Assembly (NCBI RefSeq): GCF_026210795.1
Contig: NC_089445.1
Span: 3,968,001 to 4,032,000, forward strand
Length of the DNA stretch: 64,000 bases
Reading direction: 5' to 3'
Origin: Rhizophagus irregularis
Taxonomy: Eukaryota; Glomeromycota; Glomeromycetes; Glomerales; Glomeraceae
This document shows, one piece after another, positions 7,760-62,353 of this stretch; the stretch's first letter is position 1; each line of letters starts with the position of its first letter. A model generated the notes under the pieces. It made no database searches and was not told the origin of the DNA. It saw only the letters and a program-made list of their open reading frames with translations. The translations under genes were made by a program, and so were the position numbers.

Positions 7760-9755
7760 CTTATCTTTTAAAAAAAAAAAATTATTCTTAAAAACTTCCT
7801 TTAAAATTGAAAGTTATTGATAAGCCTTTGCCAATATGCAAGCAAGTAGTGAATCCAAAAGTGGAACTATTCGATAACAAAGAACTTGTTTCAAAGAAAA
7901 TGTAAACAAAAGCGCAGTAAAAATATTTAAAAGAAACCATAAATCATATGATTAATCACAAAAACCACGAGATTTGATTGTTCCTTTGTTCAAGGGAACT
8001 TCCCAAAGAACCAAAATGTGCAACCCAAAAATCAATGTGTCGAACACAACATTAAAAATGCAAGAAATAAACAACAAAAAATCAGAAATTAGTAAAATCC
8101 TGTTCTAATCCTGATTTCTCCACAAATTACCTTGTCAAGATTTTCTTGTGTAACAAAAGGAGAATAAGAAATATTTAAGAGTATAAGAAATATAAGGTCA
8201 TGCCTGATTTCTCTTTTAGTAATTTCATAACGCCCTTCATCTAAATTTATTCATCCCAAATTTCTTTATCTAAATTGATAATACAATTATTAAACGTATT
8301 GTAGTTTTTACCGTAAGTGAAATCTGTAATAATTGTTTTACCCGCTCTCTTTCATTTGATGGTCACAACATTTGTGGGGAAGAGAGGTGAATTTATTTCC
8401 CTCCCAATCCTTTTCCTCATTTGTCACCGGTTAAATTCTTCACCTCCCCTTCTTTTTTTCTGATCCAAATTAAGTAAAATGATCCTAGTGATTTATTATT
8501 GATTAGCTTTTTCTCCTTAAAAATTGTTAATCTCTCTATCATTTGTTTTTTTTATGAATAAATTTCAACGTCAATCAAACAATTTATGATCAAAGTTTTT
8601 CATCATGAATTCCTCGTTTCTTTAATTTAAAATATTAAGGAGTTTTAGGAATTTTGGAACCCAATTTTATGATTTCTATGTGTTCAATTGCTCATATGAT
8701 TCTTTCGACTTTTTTAATTTCTAATTATTTCTTTAATTATTATTCAGACTTTATTGAAACGAAATTACAAATCTGGTAATTTTAATATATTTTAGTTACA
8801 ATCAATCATTTTATATTGATCAATATAAATAATTATTTATATTATGCACGTAGATTTAAACTAATCATATAATTGTATTGTATATAAAAAAAAATTTTTA
8901 GTAGAAGTGAGCACAGTCCATTAGTCCAACCAACTTGGTAATAATAAATATTCTAAAAGAGTCGAATGGGCAAAAAAAAAAAATTTAAATTTTCACATCT
9001 AATTAGTTTAAATTCATTTTCATTTTCGAAATTTCTTCTTCACAATTTCTTTTTTTTAAAAATATTTATTTTTCTTAATAGACCTTTTTTTTCTTTTTTC
9101 TTTTTTTCTTCTTTTCCTTGAACATATCCACTTTATAGATTATCTGTTTTTTTTAAAAAAAATTCTGCCACTAGACTTTGGTTACCCATTGTAATATATT
9201 TCTTTTTTATTTAATTTATATATATATATTTTTTTTCAAGTGCCCAATTCGCTTTATCCTTCGCGACTTCTAATTCTCCAGTGTTTATTTGAAAGTCGCG
9301 CACCTCATACATACACTGTAACCAATATACTTTGTTGTATACTTTTGACGCATATATCAGCACCACACAACAATAACTTCAAAACTTACTGGTATAACCG
9401 TTTCTTTAGAAACACAGCATTACACAAAAATATTAGTTAAACTTGTAAATACATGTTATAGACCTTTGCATTAATAACACTTCTTTCTCATTACATAAAC
9501 ATTCTCAAATTTATAGAATAAATAAAAATAATTTGAATTACTTATCAAAAAAAAATAAATCCTTGGATACCTTTTAGTAGTATTTAAAAGTAGAATCTTT
9601 TCCTTGATATATTTTTATATATATATATATATACATAAATATATATATATATTTGTAATATTTTTCTTTTAAAAAAATACCTTCAAAAGATCGTTCCGCT
9701 GGCTCCCAATCTTATACAAGCTACCCCGACAGATTCTGTTCTGTCACCACTGTTC

Positions 9756-12700
9756 ATGGAGCCAAGTCGTTGCTCGGTTCTGGTGGTTGATCGTTCTTGT
9801 ACTGAACACACCTATCAACCATCGCAAACTTCAAATTCAGTTAACTCACGTTCTTCAAACCCGTTTTTAGCTAATAGCGGTGACAGGTGCACTTGCGAGG
9901 CTAATAATAGTCAAGACATTGATGATTTGATCAAAATTTTCTTGAATATTTTCGCTGAAGGTATGATAAAAAAAAAAAAAATTTTTTTTTTTTAAAAAAA
10001 AAGAAAAGATACGTATATATAAGTTTTAGAAGAAAAATGTAATATTAGATAAAAATATTATTTTATTTCGGGATCAAATTGGATTCAAGATATGGGAAAA
10101 TTTATTGAATCTTATGAACTATTTGAATAATTTTATATACATATATATATTTTTTATATTATTATTATTATTATTATTTATTACCATAGGAACCCAATAT
10201 CCCATCCTTATATACCTTTATACCATCAGGAAAAGTCTTATTGACTGGATGGTATTCACTTTATGTGCAAAATTTTCGCATTTCAAAAATTCTCAATTTT
10301 ATTAATCAAATTTTATTTTTATATTTTTTTTTTTTTTAAAAAAAATTTAATATAGTCATCACAGTACCGTCTGGAACAAAAGCTATAAACATATTAAAAA
10401 ATAGAGATGTTGGAAGTCCACCTATTATTGTATTAATAGATATTGATCATACTGAGAGTGTTAGTCGAGATTTATATGCAAGAAGGGAATCCTTTTTAGT
10501 TATGGAAGGAGGAGTTTCTCTCTCAGAAATTCATACCAAAAAAGATACTTTATATGGTTTAGAATTATTAAGATATGTCAATTTGGAGATTTCAAAAGGA
10601 ACATTAGAACGAGTGATTCCAATCGGTAAGTAAATCTTTAATTTTTTTTTTATATTTTTTATATTAAATTATATTTTAGTTGTTCTAAATATCCTTTTAT
10701 ATATACAGTTTGTTCATTTAATGAGAATTCGGATTTTATGTTGGAATGTTTAAATAAAGGAGCTGCGGATTATTTATTAAAACCAATTAGACCAGAAGTT
10801 GCAAAAACTATATTTTTGGTATTATTACTACCTTAATTATTCAAAAATTATTTTATAATCAATAATCTTTATTAACTATTTTCTTTCACCTTATAGCATG
10901 TACATAGAACATATACATCACCTTCACGTTCTACTGAATATCCTCGCTCTATAATACGGAGGTTTTCAAATTTAGAAGACAGACTGGATGAAATCTTTAC
11001 AAAAGATAAATGGTGCGTTGATAGAACAATTAAAATTATTCCATTACATAATATAGATGAAAATATTAACCATTCATTCACTCCTTGGTATTTAGGCTAA
11101 CTAATACCATTATTCAATATTACACACCTTCTTTATCCCCATTAGATATCCCTAATTTTCCAAGGTGCGTTAACCTTAAATTAGATAATATTCCAAGTTT
11201 AGATTTACGGATTATTATCATTTTTTTTTTTTAATATTATAATTTTATGACATAAATTAAAAAAAAATTTTTTAATAATATTATATTAGATTGAATTCTG
11301 CATCAGAAATAGAGAGAACAAATATTCTTAAAAAAAAATTAACCGACTGGGAATTTGATTCACACAAGTTATCGGAAGATGATTTAATGAGATGTGTTGT
11401 TATTATTTTTGAACATGCTATGGAACTTGATGAATTAAGAGAACTCAGTATATCAACTGGTATGAATTTATAAATTCGATTTTTTTTTTTAGAGAAAAAA
11501 AAAAGGAAGTTTTAAGTTTAAACCATTTATTATTTGGATAGATGCATTACATAGGTTTCTCTTAGCTATTCGACAAGCATATCATGATAGCAATCCATAT
11601 CACAACTTTACTCACGCCGTAGATGTTCTTCAAGCGATATTTTTCTTCTTATGTGAGATGAGATTATTGCCATCTCTATTTTCCGCTGGGTACAACCGAC
11701 GGGGTAAAAGTAGCAATAAGCAACGTTGTCGTCCTAATGATTTGTTAAGAGATTCCGATGTATTTGCATTATTGTTGGCTTCCATAGGTCATGATGTTGG
11801 TCATCCAGGAGTTAATAATGATTTCTTGATACAATCACAAACTCCATTGGCTCAGTTATACAATGATAAATCTGTATTAGAAAGTTTTCATGTCATGACT
11901 TTATTTAATCTAATGCAAAAATATGGATTTAAAATTTATGAAAGTGAACCTCCATGTGAAACAAAATATTCAGGTAAATTTATTTAAAATTTTTTTGAAC
12001 GTTATTAATTAATCAATTTATTATAATTAATTTATTTATTTTATTTCTATTATTAGAATTTCGAAAGATAGTTGTGAATGCAATTCTAGCAACAGACATG
12101 CAATTACATCATAAATACGTTAAAGATATTAAGGAACAAAAATCAAGATTCGAATCAGTAGATTTTAACCCATCTCAAAAATTGGAGGAAGAGAAAAATA
12201 TAATCATTGGAGCATTGATAAAATGTGCTGATATTAGTAATACGGCGAGACCGTATCATATTGCTAAATCATGGTCCAATGTTTTATTGCAAGAATTCAC
12301 ATGTCAAGGAGACTTGGAGAGAAAATTGGGATTACCTGTAGGTCCAGTAAATGATGGTCGTGTATCACAACCTGATTCTCAGATAGGGTTCATAGATTTT
12401 TGTGCCATGCCACTTTTTAAAAGTGTTAGTGAGCTCATTCCAGGTATTTATCCTTTGATCTATAAGGATTTTTTTTAAATATTTTTTCTTTTTTAATTTA
12501 ATTATTATTTGTATAAATAGAAATCGGGTTTACTCTTAATTATCTTGAAGTAAATCGAAAAACGTGGAGTGATAAGAAGGAAACGGAAGGTGATAATTGT
12601 TCATTAAGACACAACAGTTCTTCTGGTAATAATTCTGAGTATTATTTATTTATTTATTTAGTTAGTTAATTTTATCGAATATTTTTCTAAAACTCTCGAT

Positions 12701-13059
12701 TTTATACATAAATAGTCAACTTAGATAATCGACAAAATTCTCCTATCGCTGTTCCCGCCGCAAGAACTATACCATACTTGCGACCTTTGAATTTACCAGA
12801 TGGTCCAGGATCTGAAGCACATTCAGATGATTGCGGTAAATCATCGAACCGAGATGACATTCTGAGTACAGCAGAAGCATCAGATGTTCCTTTTCGATAC
12901 GGAGGTCGTTCAAAACGAAGATCTATTTGGTCGTTATTTTCAAAAAATATGCGAAAAGCTAATACTAATAATAATTCTGTCGATAATAATTCGGATTATA
13001 ATAGTAGTCATCACAACCAAGAAGCTAACTCTAGCGTACTATGTTGTAATGTTCAATAG
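9756..13059 (+). CDS. Receiver domain-class I cyclic nucleotide phosphodiesterase fusion (RegA-like), about 735 aa
   Basis: Predicted cAMP/cGMP phosphodiesterase carrying a two-component receiver domain. Exons: 9756-9960, 10356-10625, 10709-10818, 10897-11012, 11096-11164, 11290-11459, 11542-11973, 12057-12443, 12521-12625, 12716-13059; all join in one frame. The receiver (about 6-200) has VLVVD with Asp12, IIVLID with Asp97 at the phospho-acceptor position, Ser161 after strand 4, and Lys183 in DYLLKPI. It carries extra loops after Asp12 and Asp97. The catalytic domain (about 320-600) has YHNFTHAVDV (His334, His338), the class I signature HDVGHPGVNN (397-406), ATDMQ (Asp471), CADISN (Asp516) and Gln566 before GFIDF, so it looks active. 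The C-terminus is Ser/Asn-rich and ends CCNVQ, a possible farnesylation CaaX box. The best architectural match I know is Dictyostelium RegA. ATG 9756 is the first clear start, but coding may extend upstream to about 9690. Confidence 0.9.
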
Positions 13060-14031
13060 TGACAATCAAACTGTGATGTTTGAATTATCATTTTGAAATC
13101 ATGAAATCATGATTTAATAGACTGTACTACCTATCATTCACTTTCCTGATAATAAGGTAGTATATGGTAAGATCAGAAGGAAGGAAGGATATTCTAAGAA
13201 TGATTTCATAGAATAGTTCCCGATTCCTATTTAGCTTATATTCACAGAAGATATTTTTAACTGTTATTTCGTATGTTGCCAAGTCCTTTATAACTCCATT
13301 TTCGATTCCCATGTAAATCTCGAATTCAATTAATTGCACTATGTTATATATCCACATATGATAGATAATTACCAAAAAATTTCGGCATTAATTTAAAAAA
13401 AACAACCAGCATTTTACATTTATAATTTATATACCTTTTTCACATAAAAAATAATTCGCAACAGCCCCTTTTCTAGACTACTTTTGTACAGATAGAGTTG
13501 TATATTACCTTCTCCCCTCTTTATTATTTGTCTTTTTTTTTATTGTACAGAATAGAATTATTTCATTATATGTACTTTTATATTATATATATATATATAT
13601 TTTTTTTTTACATATCCATATTTACATATTACCTTTTTTATAGATGAAAAAATTCTTATCATAATAATCATTTTTTATTTAGCACTTTAATTTATTTTAT
13701 TGAAAACCATAATAGTGTAATTATTTTAAAATAAAGAAAAAAAGTCCTTATTTTGCTATTTCAATTTGAAATCTCCGATTCCGATTTCGTATGTATATAA
13801 TCTATGCAAAAAAGCCTATTATGTTACAATCATGCACTAATAGAACTAACTGGCCAGTTAGGCACTTAGGCTGAACAACGTCCGGGAATTATCCTTAATT
13901 GGATAGATCAGGTTAAATTAATCAAATCAAAAACGCGTCTCTTTCATTCACACACAAACCCTCTCTCACAGTCTCACTCTCTTTAACATTTTTCTTTTTT
14001 TTTTTCAAAGAAAAAATAAGAAAGAAAAAAA
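13060..14031. other. Intergenic region with CT-rich leader before the F-box gene
   Basis: No gene seen. It holds the 3' end of the phosphodiesterase transcript and the upstream region of the next gene. Bases about 13936-14010 form a pyrimidine-rich stretch with CTCTC and CACACA repeats, followed by an A-rich tract directly before the ATG, plausible as a core promoter and 5' leader. Confidence 0.5.
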
Positions 14032-15666
14032 ATGTCAACTTATAGTCACGCAAAATATTTAGTTATAACAAATATAGATATATTACCAATTATACTTTCA
14101 TATGTTGATAAAAAATCACTTTTATCAAGTTCATTAGTATCACATTATTTTAATACAGTATCTACCAAAATTCTTTATTCTAAAGTTAATTTAAAAAATG
14201 TTAAAAATGTTGATTCATTCCTTCATACTTTAGATCGTACAACACATTATAATTTATATAATACTATTCATACAAATGAATATCTTGTTAATAATATTCA
14301 TAGTATAACAATGGATAGTCCAAATTTAGCGTACCTTTCAGGTGAGAAATTAAGTAAATGTATTAGTGAATGTAGAAAATTAAAAGAAGTTATAATTGGA
14401 AATTGTACTTTAAGTCAAAGTATTATTATATCTATTACATTATTGGAAAATTTAAATATATTAAAATTTAAAAGATGTACTATTATTAATAATAATTTAC
14501 TTAATTATTTGATATCAGGTTTATGTAATGATGAAAATTTTAATATGGCAAATATTATAAAAACAATCACATCAACTACAACAACAACTATTAATACTAT
14601 ACCAACTCAAAAAAATAAATTAAAAAATATAATAGCAAAAAAAGTTTTACATACACGTAGTAGTAGTAGTGGTAGTATTAATAGTAATACTATTAGTAGT
14701 GAAATTACAACGATTCAAAATAATGATGATTCTATTTATTTATCAAAATTAACAAAATTAACACATTTAACTATTGATATACAACCTTCATGTCCACAAC
14801 AATTAATAATTTTATTAATACAACAAAATAAAAATTTAAAATCTTTAGATTTACTTTTTCAAGGTTTAGATGAATCATTACTTATAATCACTCAAATTTC
14901 TAATAATTTAGAATATTTAAATATTACTGAGAATAAAAATTTATCCGAAAAAACTGTTTTTCAATTAATCAAAAATTGTTTTTTCAAATCTGATAGTATT
15001 GATAATGATGATGATAATAATAATAATTATTGTAGATTAAAAAAATTAACAATAGATTATGGTCCTTTCTCAGAAAAATTTTTATTTTCATTATCAAACC
15101 TTTGTAAAACACAACGAAAAATTTCAATTACTCAACAACCTGAAGAACCTGAAACCGATTATCCTGGAGTTGATTTAGTATTTACTAATGATTCGTTAGA
15201 AATATTATTGGATAATTGTAAAAACATTGGTCAAATATTAAATACTTTCTATTTAAATATGGATGTTGATAATAGTGACATTATTAATCCTAATAGAATT
15301 GAAGAATTAATATTGAATAGAATAAATATTTCTTCAGATAATTTAAACCTTATTTGTGAAAATTTTGATTTTAAAATATTTAAATTACAAAATTTACTAA
15401 AAAGAGGGAATAGGTTAACAAAAAGAATTATATTAGATAATATCATATTATTATCTAATTTAGAATATTTATTTGTTACTGATGATGATGATGATGATGA
15501 TAAGAATAATTTAGAACAATTGAATTATAATGATTTTAATGAACTGGCTCAAAATTGTCCTAATATGGTTCAAATTTATTGGAATCATAAACAATTTATT
15601 GATAAATTTAAAATTCCATCAAAATTCATACAGGTGGTTGATAATAATATATGGAAAAATTTTTGA
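14032..15666 (+). CDS. F-box/leucine-rich-repeat-like protein, single exon, 544 aa
   Basis: Probable substrate-recognition subunit of an SCF-type ubiquitin ligase, or a relative. Residues about 14-55 (ILPIILSYVDKKSLLSSSLV, then a segment ending in ILYSKVNL) look like an F-box: a Leu-Pro start, an ILSYVD core, and the LVSHYFNTVSTKILY helix common in fungal F-box proteins. The rest holds irregular Leu/Ile/Asn-rich segments (LTKLTHLTIDIQ, NLEYLNITENKNLSE, NLKSLDLLFQGL) that resemble degenerate leucine-rich repeats. Low-complexity Ser/Thr, Asn/Asp and poly-Asp tracts interrupt these. It has no introns, unlike its neighbours. Its stop lies 13 bp from the stop of the opposing STN1-like gene, so the two 3' ends must overlap as transcripts. 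F-box proteins are a large family in Rhizophagus-like fungi. The target is unknown. Confidence 0.8.
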   Translation: MSTYSHAKYLVITNIDILPIILSYVDKKSLLSSSLVSHYFNTVSTKILYSKVNLKNVKNVDSFLHTLDRTTHYNLYNTIHTNEYLVNNIHSITMDSPNLAYLSGEKLSKCISECRKLKEVIIGNCTLSQSIIISITLLENLNILKFKRCTIINNNLLNYLISGLCNDENFNMANIIKTITSTTTTTINTIPTQKNKLKNIIAKKVLHTRSSSSGSINSNTISSEITTIQNNDDSIYLSKLTKLTHLTIDIQPSCPQQLIILLIQQNKNLKSLDLLFQGLDESLLIITQISNNLEYLNITENKNLSEKTVFQLIKNCFFKSDSIDNDDDNNNNYCRLKKLTIDYGPFSEKFLFSLSNLCKTQRKISITQQPEEPETDYPGVDLVFTNDSLEILLDNCKNIGQILNTFYLNMDVDNSDIINPNRIEELILNRINISSDNLNLICENFDFKIFKLQNLLKRGNRLTKRIILDNIILLSNLEYLFVTDDDDDDDKNNLEQLNYNDFNELAQNCPNMVQIYWNHKQFIDKFKIPSKFIQVVDNNIWKNF

Positions 15667-19987: not shown

Positions 19988-22774
19988 TTAAAAAGGTTTG
20001 TGAATAACCGATGGAACAGGAGTCGTTTGATAAAATTCTATAGTTTTCTTTGCTTTTTCAGAAATATTTTCAGCCGTAAAACCATATTTCTTGTAAAGTT
20101 GTTGATAAGGTCCAGAAGAACCAAAAATTGTCATGCCAATATTTGCGTGAGCAAATTTTGACCAACCAAAAGTTGCTAGCGCTTCAACACTTAAAATTGG
20201 AATACCATCGGGAAAAACTGACGACTTATAATCAATGCTTTGTTCTTCAAAAAGTTCAAAGCACGGTAAAGATACTACACGTGTTTTAACTCCCTCAGAT
20301 TCTAATTTTTTGGATGCTTCAACTACGATTGATATTTCGGATCCAGTACCGGTTAAAGTGATTTTTGCATCCGTACATTCTTTCAATACATAACCTCCTT
20401 TAAGGGTATTCTCAACAGATGATCCTTCTAAATGGGGTAAATTTTGTCGAGAAAGACAAAATACTGATGGTCTATTGAGATTGCTAATTGCTGCAAGGTA
20501 AGCCCCAGACACTTCATTGCCATCTGCTGGACGGAAAACCAAAATATTTGGTAATGCACGTAGACCAGCGACTGTTTCAATGGGTTGATGAGTAGGTCCG
20601 TCCTCACCTGTATATTTAAAAAAGTAATTTCATTTTTTAATAAGTAACAAAAAATTAATTGCTAATAAAGTAATTATTTTCGTACCCAAACCGATTGAAT
20701 CATGAGTCATTATATAAAGTACACGAAAAGAAGAAAGAGCCGCTAATCGAACAGATCCCAATCCATAGCTAATAAAGTTCAAGAAAGTACCACCGAAAGG
20801 GATTAAACCTCCATAAGCAGTAAGACCATTCATTACACCAAACATGCCATGTTCACGAACACCATATCTAATGTAGCGTCCTGAATAATTACCCAAACCC
20901 GTTGATTGGGGCTGAAAATCAACCGCCGTTTTCCAACGTGTTAAATTAGAGCCTGTTAAATCCGCTGAACCACCAATAAGCTCTGGTATAGCATCAGCGA
21001 TCTTATTTAACACATTTTCAGATAATTTTCTTGTAGCAACTGCGGGATCAGATGGCGTATAACGTGGCAGATGTTTTTCCCAACCCTCTGGCAATTTATT
21101 ACTGAATCTACGTTTGATTTCATTACCCTGTTAATTAGATAATAACGCTTTAATATAAAAAGTTGACCTTAAAATCTTGATACTTTAAATCTATAAACAC
21201 ATTACCTTCTCTGGGAATTTAGCAGTGTAGTTCTCCAATAGTTTATTCCATTGAGCTTCGGCGGCTTTGCCTTTTTCACGGTATTGACCATAAAGTTCAT
21301 AAACCTCATTAGGTACGTGGAAGAATTTTTCCGGATCAAATCCGAATTTCTTTTTGACTTCGACAATATCATCGGGTGCTAACGGAGCTCCGTGAACTTT
21401 TTCAGTACCTTCATTTTTTGAACCAATGCCAATGATAGTTCTAATCTTAATTAATGAAGGCTTATTTGTCACTTTCTTGGCATTTTCAATAGCCTTAGTA
21501 ATGCCTTCAAGATCATTATCGCCATCCGCGATCACTTGAGTGTGCCATCCATAAGCTTCGAAACGTTTACAAACGTCTTCAGTAAAACTAACTTCTGTGT
21601 CACCTATAATGTAAAATTGGATTGTATACAATTAAGTGGATTGATTAATTGTAATCTTCTTCTCTATTTGAGGAGAATCCAAAAATTTCAATTTGAAATA
21701 TACGAAATTTAACATACCATCGATAGACACGTGATTATCATCATAGAGAGCGATTAGATTGCCGAGTTGCAAATGTCTATAAGATTGATCCGCACTCATT
21801 AGATTAAATCGTTTAAGTCGACTTTAAATTCTATCAAACGCTTACCCTGCAAGGGAAGCCGCTTCAGAAGCAACACCTTCTTGAAGACAGCCATCGCCAA
21901 CAATCACGTAAACGTGATTCGTGAATAAATCAAACCCTGGTTGGTTAAAAACAGCAGCGAAATGAGCTTGGGCAATGGCCAAACCTACGGAATTACTAAA
22001 ACCTAATAAAGATATACCACAATTCGATTATTGGTCGAAAAAAAAGAATCAAAGACGTTTAACAAATTATGACGCGTAGTGATCATTTACCCTGCCCAAG
22101 TGGACCGGTAGTTACTTCAATGCCTTCAGTTAAGTGACATTCTGGATGACCAGGAGTCCTAAGAAGAATGCGATATTTAATGTAAAGTTTTTATACATGA
22201 GTCATGCTCGCATTTAGGTCTTACTTGCTATCGGTTTGACGGAACAGTTTTAAATCATCTATTGTTAGATTACATCCCAGTAAATGAAGCAAGATATACT
22301 GCAACGCGCATCCATGACCATTGGATAAGACAAAACGATCACGGTTGGGCTAAATAAAAGAAATGTAAAGCAAAAATCGAAAATGAATTTTAATTATCAC
22401 ATGTATATCACGGTTAAGTAGATCACAAAAAAAAAAAATTGGTCGGATAATCGCAAAATTTTGATGATCATCGCATCTCTGCGAGAGCAATTGCAAACTA
22501 ACATACCCATTTCGGATTTTCTGGGTTGGCTGTGATAAAATTGGAGAAAAGAACATGGGCCATAGGAGCGCATCCCATGGGAGCACCTAAAGAGGATAAT
22601 TTATTTTCAAATTATTATTCAAATAAATACCAGCAATGTACAGCCACTCATTCCTCCAGAGATAAGTCAATAAAATTCGACCATACCAGGGTGTCCAGAA
22701 TTAGCTTTTCTTACAACATCCGCGGCAAGCGTACGAATAGTATTAATAGCAATATGATCAATTTGTTGATACAT
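19988..22774 (-). CDS. TKL1: Transketolase, 9 exons, about 678 aa
   Basis: Thiamine-diphosphate enzyme of the non-oxidative pentose phosphate pathway; moves two-carbon units from xylulose 5-phosphate to ribose 5-phosphate or erythrose 4-phosphate in the cytosol. Minus-strand exons: 22774-22687, 22586-22507, 22349-22225, 22158-22091, 22002-21846, 21776-21718, 21603-21206, 21127-20686, 20607-19988. Seen motifs: [19 protein letters not shown] near the start, [25 protein letters not shown], the cofactor-binding [14 protein letters not shown] (Gly156-Asp157) with [11 protein letters not shown], and [11 protein letters not shown] with the catalytic Glu417 (position 418 in yeast). Then [19 protein letters not shown] and PADGNEV. 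The C-terminal domain ends in VPSVIHKPF. Length and all key residues match active fungal transketolases. The start ATG at 22774 gives the usual short N-terminus ([20 protein letters not shown]). Confidence 0.97.
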
Positions 22775-59686: not shown

Positions 59687-62353
59687 ATGTCAAAAAATCC
59701 AGTATTGAACACGTACAATTTTGTTAGTACGTCAAACCGTCAACTACAACTCGATAGGTAAATTTTACTCAAGTATTATCAACTTTCTTATTAAAACGTG
59801 AATTTCTCAATAAACGCGCAATTTTTTCGTTTTTCACGTAGCAATCATTATGAACTTATCATACGACAACAACCAAAACAAGCTCGGTTGTGTAGTTCAA
59901 AAGAACGAGGTATGAATCTTATAATTATACTGTAATTATTTTATTCAAGTATAATTCTTAATTAATTTGTTTAATTTATCAATTAATAAATAGATCGAAG
60001 ACCAGTTGACCCACCTCCAATCATTCAATTAAAAGTAAATGGTTATGGCGATGAAGCTCAGTATGTATCTTATAATAAAAAAAGTTCTTTCAGATTGATC
60101 AATTAGCTTAAATTAAAATTTAATCAATTTGATCCTTTATTACTAGAAACTTCCTACAAAGTCCTTATTATTTTATGTGTGCAAATCTCGTACATCCTAC
60201 AGATAGCGGTGAAAGTTTTACCGTTTCTTCGCGTTACCTTGCTGGTACCGTTGTCTCTTCCTTACACAAATTGAAAGACATCGATAATAAAGGTACTTTC
60301 TCATCATTAATGTTTTGTGTATATTGTACACGTATTATTTAACTCATATCTTTTTCTCTTGAATTATTTTAAATCAGATGGTGGTTTTTTTGTGTTTGGA
60401 GACATATCTGTACGTGTCGAGGGTCGTTATCGTTTAAGATTTAGTTTGTTCGAAATCATAAGGTAATTTAACAAGATATAAAATTTGTCCAAAGTTTATA
60501 TTAAATGCTAAATTAAATTTTTTTTTTTTTTCTTCCTTACCTTTTTTTTTCGGTACGATTTAAAAAGAGATGAGGTTGTTCATATACAATCAGTGGTATC
60601 AGATGTTTTTACGGTTTATTCACCAAAAGCATTTCCTGGAATGTCAGAGTCTACATTTTTATCTAGGTCTTTTTCAGATCAAGGTGTAAGAATAAGGATT
60701 CGTAAGGAACATCGAATTCAAATGAAACGTCCACAATCTAATAATAGACAATCTGATACTACCGAATATGATGATGATAATATAAATATAAATGATGATG
60801 GAATTACGGATATTCCTGCTAAAAGAAAGAGGAGCAAAAGTCAAATTGCACAAATTTCTACATTTAAATCTACTCCTCCATTGGAATTACTTGATAATAC
60901 TTCAATGTCTTATTCACAATCACAACATTCACCGTACGCTCCTTCATCTGATTCATCTTATCCATCATATCAACAATATCATAAGTTTAGACAAGGTGGT
61001 GGATCATTATCATATCCTCCTCCATTATTAGGGTATCCACCTCATCCACCTCAACGTCAAAATTCATATTATGAGGATCATGAATACGGACCGTCATCTC
61101 GTGATGATCATACGTCATCATCGCCTTATTATTATGGTGAACAATATAAACGTCCGAGATTATCAAATTCTGAAGTGCCTCCTTATGATTATCGACAATC
61201 ATCAATAGTAACACCCTTAAAAGATAATCAATTTACAACTACTAACCATCACCACCACCATTATACCACTTCTTCTCCTCCTCCCCATCCTCCTCCTCCT
61301 TCTTCTTCTTCTCTTTCACCATCTTCATATCGTACATCACGAAGATTATCTCCTTTATTAGAACATCAACCTTCTTACGTCACCTCTTCTACTAACAATT
61401 CATCATCTCATGTGTTTAATCATGATCATTCTCTTCCTAATGCTCGTCATCGCTCTTTTGATGTATTAACGTCAACAGCTTCTTCAAATACTACATCCTT
61501 GGATTCTTTTCATTATTCTGTAACATCACCATCCCCATCATCATCATCATCATCTGCTACAACACTTCAACCTGTTCAGCCTTCAGAACCTTTTTATCAA
61601 TCATCTTCATCATTCACTCCAAAACCTCCTTCTAGATCCCGAACATTACCGCTTTACAGTCATAATGGCATTAATAATAATGACAATGATAATGATAACA
61701 TACATCACCATAATTATCATCATGATTCTACTGCATCATTTTCATCATCTAATCAATTACCTACTCCAAAAACTTCAATTGATGTTGATGTTTTACATAG
61801 TTTACATCATAATCATAATAAAAAACAATTATATTCGTCATATCCTCCATTAACACCTCCAAATCTAAACAGTTCATCTGTAGATAGTTATAAAAGTGGT
61901 AATAATAATAGCAGTAATAATCTTACACCTAGTTTTACTCAACATTTTACCTCAAGTCCTAGACCTGGACCACTTCAATTACCTCCTAAATCACCATTAT
62001 CATCAAACATGAGAACTAATTCATTACCAATAATGTCTTCTAATTCAAGTACAAGTTCCTCAAATTCTACAACATTCTTGAATAATAATGAAGGAGTATT
62101 AACTAGTTCACCATTATTATTACCTACTACTAATACTGATAATTTACCAAAATTACCACCTATAACTTCTTTAACAAGTAGAATTGATTTTATTATGAAT
62201 AAGACAAAGGACAATTATTATAATGATAGTGTACCACAACAACAAGGACAACAATATTATCATCAATCTTATTCTATGGATGATAACAACCTAAATTATA
62301 ATAACAATGTTTGGCATAATAATGGTGGTAGTAGTATTGATAATGGATATTAG
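59687..62353 (+). CDS. Velvet-domain transcription factor (VosA/VelB-like), 6 exons, about 740 aa
   Basis: Fungal nuclear regulator; velvet proteins bind DNA through an NF-kappaB-like fold and control development and secondary metabolism. Exons: 59687-59757, 59842-59909, 59994-60060, 60147-60292, 60378-60462, 60568-62353, in one frame. The velvet domain spans about residues 24-190: [85 protein letters not shown], and [20 protein letters not shown] with [13 protein letters not shown]. This order and wording match VosA/VelB, not VeA. A long Ser/Pro/His/Asn/Tyr-rich tail (about 210-740) has a basic patch PAKRKRSKS (possible nuclear signal) and no recognisable domain; Aspergillus VosA is shorter. 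All introns lie within the domain region and the tail is a single exon. The upstream leader is poly-T/A. Confidence 0.93.

What the first reader, a model, noticed from the sequence alone, without database searches (positions are those of the whole stretch)
9756..13059. Fungal receiver-phosphodiesterase fusion that keeps the phosphorelay residues
The protein joins a two-component receiver (Asp12, Asp97, Ser161, Lys183 all in the expected positions) to a complete class I phosphodiesterase. The architecture I know like this is Dictyostelium RegA, where a phosphorelay switches on cAMP breakdown; animal PDE8 has a degenerate receiver. Ascomycete PDE1/PDE2 lack it. If real, it would wire histidine-kinase phosphorelay directly to cAMP in a mycorrhizal fungus. 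Large insertions after Asp12 and Asp97 make the receiver atypical, which may hide it from standard domain searches.
Basis: partly seen in the sequence, partly recalled or inferred. Interest (0 to 1): 0.8.

Follow-up and report, generated by a model that had tools for sequence, protein, structure and literature searches.

The report
Receiver-linked cAMP phosphodiesterase in a fungus
A fungal genome appears to carry one gene that fuses a bacterial-style phosphate-receiver switch to an enzyme predicted to break down the signal molecule cAMP, as in the slime mould protein RegA, but one key metal-binding residue of the switch is replaced by arginine, so it may no longer be switched by phosphate in the usual way.

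Summary
The ten-exon, 735-aa model is reproduced exactly. The C-terminal half is a complete class I phosphodiesterase (E 1.8e-73); its best PDB match is 6cpt (C. albicans PDE2 by recall). The N-terminal half is a real but divergent receiver. Pfam sees only its last third, below cut-off. With two loop inserts cut out it passes (34.1 bits, cut-off 30.2), while 8 of 8 shuffled controls stay at 18.0-21.3. A loop-tolerant alignment puts D12, D97, S161 and K183 on the conserved columns. R13 sits where CheY D13K is an activating mutant. So the layout is RegA-like, but phosphorelay competence is open. One HPt, a CHASE domain and a cyclase were found in the genome, so the circuit is possible. No RNA, usable structure or sequence from another fungus could be checked. 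New variant of a known kind; moderate interest.

The parts
9756..13059 (+). ten-exon gene, predicted 735-aa receiver-phosphodiesterase
   Evidence: splice model; exon GC 0.27-0.40, intron GC 0.08-0.27; no second copy found in G000
9756..10908 (+). receiver domain, aa 1-199 (exons 1-3 and start of exon 4)
9789..9794 (+). D12 (first acid of the DD pair) and R13 (replaces the second acid)
   Evidence: exon 1 motif alone weak
9804..9923 (+). insert between beta-1 and alpha-1 (aa 17-56, boundaries set by CheY spacing)
10439..10441 (+). D97, predicted phosphoacceptor
10451..10543 (+). insert between D97 and alpha-3 (aa 101-131, approximate boundaries)
10714..10716 (+). S161 (conserved Thr/Ser position)
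10780..10782 (+). K183 (conserved Lys position)
11013..11095 (+). intron 4, bordering the least certain junction; if retained, the exon 4 frame stops at 11098-11100 (receiver-only product)
11598..12540 (+). class I phosphodiesterase catalytic domain, aa 333-593 (exons 7-9)
   Evidence: motifs located

Best explanation
One gene encodes a class I phosphodiesterase, presumably cAMP-directed, preceded by its own receiver domain, in the RegA arrangement. The receiver most likely controls the catalytic half within the molecule. In the most likely version, phosphate from hybrid histidine kinases passes through the HPt found in the genome to D97, and the receiver's state changes the hydrolysis rate. 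Shown by sequence: both domains, one continuous reading frame after predicted splicing, four of five receiver catalytic residues, and matches in the same genome to HPt, CHASE and adenylate/guanylate cyclase families. Inferred: the joining in mRNA, phosphate transfer, the direction of control and cAMP specificity. R13 should weaken Mg binding and bias the switch towards one state, so any phosphate control is probably slow or partial.
For: PDEase_I complete; best PDB match 6cpt (listed as 'Phosphodiesterase'; C. albicans PDE2 by recall), E 2.8e-49, aligned from aa 230, i.e. from the end of exon 4 on. Receiver: 34.1 bits against 18.0-21.3 in 8 controls; ARR1 E 1.6e-7 over the whole trimmed query; 0 of 1000 shuffles; D12/D97/S161/K183 on the conserved columns; 0 of 2000 for aa 1-152; 0 of 2000 for exon 2 alone. 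An aromatic K-3 (Y180; aromatic in 11 of 16 references) and the K+1 proline (13 of 15) are present. A PDE-only gene would need an in-frame start: the first Met after the receiver is M290, downstream of LTDWEFD at aa 274-280. Partners: HPt with HFLKGSSAAIG; CHASE match 2.6-3.4 kb from the genome's best receiver match on the same strand; cyclase.
Against: R13 replaces an acid present in 16 of 16 reference receivers, D+4 is not Pro (16 of 16 references) and T+1 is Phe (0 of 16). A 31-residue insert begins next to D97. The exon 1 motif is not significant alone, and the Pfam match of the trimmed copy leaves out beta-1. The exon 4/5 junction is ambiguous, and a 746-aa variant with a GC donor also fits. 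No transcript data, no homologue from another fungus (searches found no relative, in collections not made for fungi), no usable structure model (mean pLDDT 37).
Confidence: 0.5

Rival explanations
1. Pseudo-receiver: the same fused protein, but the receiver no longer accepts phosphate and works as a fixed regulatory or docking domain. R13 may hold it in an active-like state. Receivers lacking a conserved residue exist in fungi (about 3%, and about 27% of the unclassified response regulators are degenerate or lack conserved residues, per PMC8510515).
For: R13 at the position of CheY D13; passages state that CheY D13K (in one paper the D13K/Y106W double mutant) is constitutively active and that the CheY equivalent is poorly phosphorylated; Phe at T+1, the position that controls access to the site; D+4 Pro missing.
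Against: D97, S161, K183, the K+1 Pro and an aromatic K-3 are all kept, which a long-dead site would be expected to lose; D13K did not activate the M. xanthus receiver EpsW, so the effect is not general.
Confidence: 0.38
2. Two genes or a splice choice: a receiver-only product ending at the stop at 11098-11100 and a separate or alternatively started PDE.
For: Exon 4 reads on open to a stop at 11098-11100, and the intron it would cross (11013-11095) has the highest GC of the nine introns, 0.27.
Against: No in-frame Met upstream of LTDWEFD in the PDE half; the alignment with 6cpt begins at aa 230 in exon 4 and crosses exons 5 and 6, though weakly there.
Confidence: 0.08
3. The N-terminal half is not a receiver; the resemblance is chance.
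For: Pfam match under cut-off and limited to about 35 residues in the untrimmed protein; the trim was chosen after seeing the sequence.
Against: Controls. Untrimmed, the two ARR1 sequences match at E 2.8e-4 and 3.2e-4; the other 10 of 12 matches are weak (E 0.62-1.7), but 11 of the 12 carry names of two-component or chemotaxis proteins, some by recall.
Confidence: 0.04

Closest known systems
Dictyostelium RegA and RegA of Acanthamoeba, Naegleria, Physarum
   Same: Response-regulator domain followed by an HDc-type PDE domain; histidine-kinase genes in the same genomes (literature passages and sections).
   Different: A fungus; one metal-binding acid replaced by Arg; two large loop inserts. RegA sequences themselves could not be aligned here.
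Fungal high-affinity PDE2 (PDB 6cpt; C. albicans PDE2 by recall)
   Same: Best of 153 PDB sequence matches, E 2.8e-49, with the alignment reaching upstream of the PDEase_I domain.
   Different: The receiver half gave no match to it at E up to 10. Whether the first 173 residues of the 6cpt chain are a decayed receiver could not be tested.
Animal PDE8
   Same: REC-type domain in a class I PDE protein (the passage seen notes a REC domain in human PDE8A).
   Different: No PAS domain found here (that PDE8 has PAS is recalled); here four of five receiver catalytic residues remain.
Arabidopsis ARR1 receiver
   Same: Best solved relative of the receiver half: E 2.8e-4 untrimmed, 1.6e-7 trimmed.
   Different: ARR1 shows VVDDD at the acid pair in the alignment and has no PDE (recalled).

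Membership tests
Receiver domain (Response_reg, PF00072) | profile match over the domain | tested here: inconclusive
   native protein under cut-off (17.5 and 22.1 bits against 30.2); insert-trimmed copy over it (34.1)
Receiver domain (Response_reg, PF00072) | phosphoacceptor Asp, Ser/Thr and Lys on conserved columns | tested here: met
   D97, S161, K183 in the printed alignment
Receiver domain (Response_reg, PF00072) | pair of acids (DD) binding the metal | tested here: not met
   D12 present, partner is R13; 16 of 16 reference receivers have Asp there
Class I cyclic nucleotide PDE (PF00233) | complete catalytic domain with its motifs | tested here: met
   profile 1-236 of 238, E 1.8e-73; PYHN, HDVGHPG, KCADISN, SQIGFIDF located (that these are the hallmark motifs is recalled)
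RegA | receiver followed by class I PDE in one protein | tested here: met
   by gene model only; no RNA
RegA | phylogenetic grouping with RegA | not tested
   I had no RegA sequence to align
RegA | PDE activity controlled by phosphorelay | not testable with these tools
   needs biochemistry
PDE8 | PAS domain between REC and PDE (recalled) | tested here: not met
   only PDEase_I and Response_reg found at E up to 10

The most novel reading that the evidence does not exclude
A plant-root symbiont wires its plant-hormone-type histidine kinases (the CHASE/cytokinin-receptor homologue, and the ethylene-receptor homologue reported for Rhizophagus) through its HPt to a RegA-type phosphodiesterase, so that host hormones set fungal cAMP. 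The natural R13 makes the receiver a form caught between a phosphate-switched RegA and a phosphate-blind PDE8.
Probability: 0.2. Interest if true: 0.85.

Novelty: new variant of a known kind. Interest (0 to 1): 0.52.

Why it matters
The 2014 RegA survey searched all eukaryotic GenBank genes with Dictyostelium RegA as bait; the sections I read list homologues in Dictyostelia, Acanthamoeba and Naegleria and name no fungus. A fungal receiver-PDE would extend the arrangement to another kingdom and give a direct candidate output from histidine kinases to cAMP in a mycorrhizal fungus, where the outputs of the hormone-receptor-like kinases are not known to me. Because standard domain searches cut the receiver off here, the same architecture may be overlooked in other fungi. 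The R13 change makes a clean test of whether such receivers are live switches or relics.

Tried and rejected
Not supported; the sequence is recalled, so this is only a lead.

Relatives in other collections: viral contigs (4 stretches matched a pattern, none confirmed), genome contigs (26 stretches, none confirmed), phages with exon 2, no relative. These are collections of viruses and prokaryotes, so this says little about fungi.

Structure: AlphaFold of exon 2 alone gave mean pLDDT 37, uninformative; no fold search was made with it.

Split-gene reading: checked through in-frame starts and judged unlikely.

PKA regulatory subunit search with RIIa found nothing, and nothing in the controls either: no conclusion.

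A first version of the 'N-half alone' and yeast Pde2 tests used the wrong model columns; both were redone, and only one search is used for them. In one search the automatic column labels failed for D and T; I read those two from the printed alignment.

Papers: searches. Listings were partly capped (25 of 33, 10 of 13, 20 of 29, 20 of 527 and 15 of 72 papers shown). No title or abstract start shown names a fungal RegA-like receiver-PDE. I opened 11 papers, as passages or single sections, never whole, so this does not show absence from print. Table S4 of PMC8510515 (unclassified fungal response regulators with enzymatic domains) was not readable here and might list such proteins.

Full report
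Gene model. The window is G000:C17:3968001-4032000 of a 146.7-Mb genome in 32 contigs. The organism is not given; size and AT-richness fit Rhizophagus irregularis (recall), and a Velvet-factor exon in the window fits a fungus (that Velvet factors are fungal is recalled). All nine introns are GT..AG; exon GC is 0.27-0.40 and intron GC 0.08-0.27; ATG 9756 is the first in-frame ATG after an in-frame stop at 9636. The least certain junction is exon 4/5: a 746-aa alternative uses a GC donor after 11095, one search lists several other open combinations there, and read-through of intron 4 ends at 11098-11100. A search of G000 with aa 1-607 gave 11 matches, all in this gene or in the distant C13 phosphodiesterase, so no second copy was found.

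Catalytic half. PDEase_I matches at aa 333-593 over profile positions 1-236 of 238, E 1.8e-73. The best of 153 PDB sequences (60 shown) is 6cpt, listed only as 'Phosphodiesterase' (C. albicans PDE2 by recall), E 2.8e-49, aligned from aa 230. The motifs PYHNFTHAVDV, HDVGHPG, KCADISN and SQIGFIDF are at aa 332-342, 397-403, 513-519 and 565-572. G000 showed one other class I PDE gene (C13), and no receiver was found in the 3.8-kb stretch fetched around it. Cyclic AMP as the substrate is inferred from the relationship to PDE2; it was not tested.

Receiver half. Pfam sees only about aa 154-188, below the cut-off, and the genome-wide Response_reg search, which listed 21 exon matches at E up to 0.1, did not list this gene. 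I set the trim by CheY spacing (aa 17-56 and 101-131 removed). The trimmed copy scored 34.1 bits (E 3.3e-8; cut-off 30.2) over profile positions 16-104, which leaves out beta-1 and D12; 8 of 8 copies with the part before beta-4 shuffled scored 18.0-21.3. By phmmer the trimmed copy matched Arabidopsis ARR1 over its whole length (E 1.6e-7). Of 30 PDB sequences at E up to 0.1, all but two (a de novo protein and RphyB) bear names of two-component or chemotaxis proteins, some recognised by recall.

To avoid choosing the trim by eye, I built a model from 16 receivers (13 of E. coli, 3 of G000, one of these partial) and aligned the native 199 residues with cheap long loops. The printed alignment places D12, D97, S161 and K183 on the DD, D, T and K columns (the script's automatic labels failed for D and T). 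It did not place alpha-1 convincingly. Shuffling aa 1-152 with aa 153-199 kept reached the real score in 0 of 1000 and 1 of 400. At the three other gap costs tried the counts were 0, 1 and 4 of 400; 0 of 53 overlapping stretches of window reading frames, fused to aa 153-199, reached it. Without the C-terminal third, aa 1-152 beat 2000 of 2000 shuffles and exon 2's part 2000 of 2000, but exon 1's beta-1 motif was matched by 326 of 5000. So the receiver is real; D12 rests on position and predicted splicing more than on statistics.

Against the 16 reference receivers: the second acid is Asp in 16 of 16 and R13 here; D+4 is Pro in 16 of 16 and T101 here; T+1 is Phe in 0 of 16 and F162 here. An aromatic K-3 (Y180; 11 of 16 references) and the K+1 proline (13 of 15) are present. 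The fungal receiver survey states that DD binds the metal essential for phosphotransfer in bacterial receivers, that T+1 controls access to the site, that D+4 Pro and D+8 Gly are even more frequent in fungi than the bacterial 88% and 91%, that atypical receivers are about 3% in fungi apart from Rim15, and that about 27% of unclassified fungal response regulators contain deletions, degenerate sequence or missing conserved residues (PMC8510515, abstract, passages, sections 4 and 9). R13 corresponds to CheY D13. Passages report CheY D13K as constitutively active (in PMC11528121 as the D13K/Y106W double mutant) and the CheY equivalent as poorly phosphorylated, while the same change did not activate EpsW (PMC4671073). 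These passages make two outcomes plausible: a weakened but live switch, or a locked pseudo-receiver.

Circuit. The searches of G000 gave one HPt match (C20, HFLKGSSAAIG), one CHASE match on C30, 2.6-3.4 kb from the strongest receiver match and on the same strand, and one adenylate/guanylate cyclase match. These counts are of matches found exon by exon and may miss genes. Passages of PMC5285503 describe one ethylene-receptor-like and one cytokinin-receptor-like hybrid kinase in Rhizophagus. A PKA regulatory subunit was sought with a family that rang nowhere, so nothing follows from it.

Comparison. PMC3906536 (passages, sections 16 and 24) and passages of PMC4758236 and PMC3783435 describe RegA: a response regulator followed by a PDE, controlled by histidine kinases, found in Dictyostelia, Acanthamoeba, Naegleria and Physarum. 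The 2014 survey screened all eukaryotic GenBank genes with Dictyostelium RegA as bait, and the sections I read name no fungus. The protein resembles RegA in layout. It is not filed as a RegA member, because orthology was not tested and the DD pair fails. It is not a PDE8, because no PAS domain was found.

Verdict. A real, divergent receiver-phosphodiesterase fusion, predicted from sequence and found once in the genome. The architecture is confirmed at the sequence level, the phosphorelay function is undecided, and the hormone-to-cAMP wiring is a hypothesis.

Noticed in passing
window 14020-15666 +: F-box-like protein in one open frame just downstream (Pfam F-box-like E 3.2e-4, below its cut-off).
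   Followed up: no
window 60512-62353 +: Frame holding the last part of a Velvet-factor match (Pfam Velvet E 8.3e-15, profile 190-236 of 237) followed by a very long low-complexity Ser/Pro/His/Asn tail.
   Followed up: no
window 19988-20629 -: Transketolase C-terminal exon.
   Followed up: no
window 11013-11095: Intron 4 has the highest GC of the nine introns (0.27) and is open in the exon 4 frame, so its retention would give a receiver-only protein ending at 11098-11100.
   Followed up: partly
G000:C13:3662956-3663945 (L001): The only other class I phosphodiesterase gene found in the genome, with a long Ser-rich C-terminal extension and no receiver found in the fetched stretch.
   Followed up: partly
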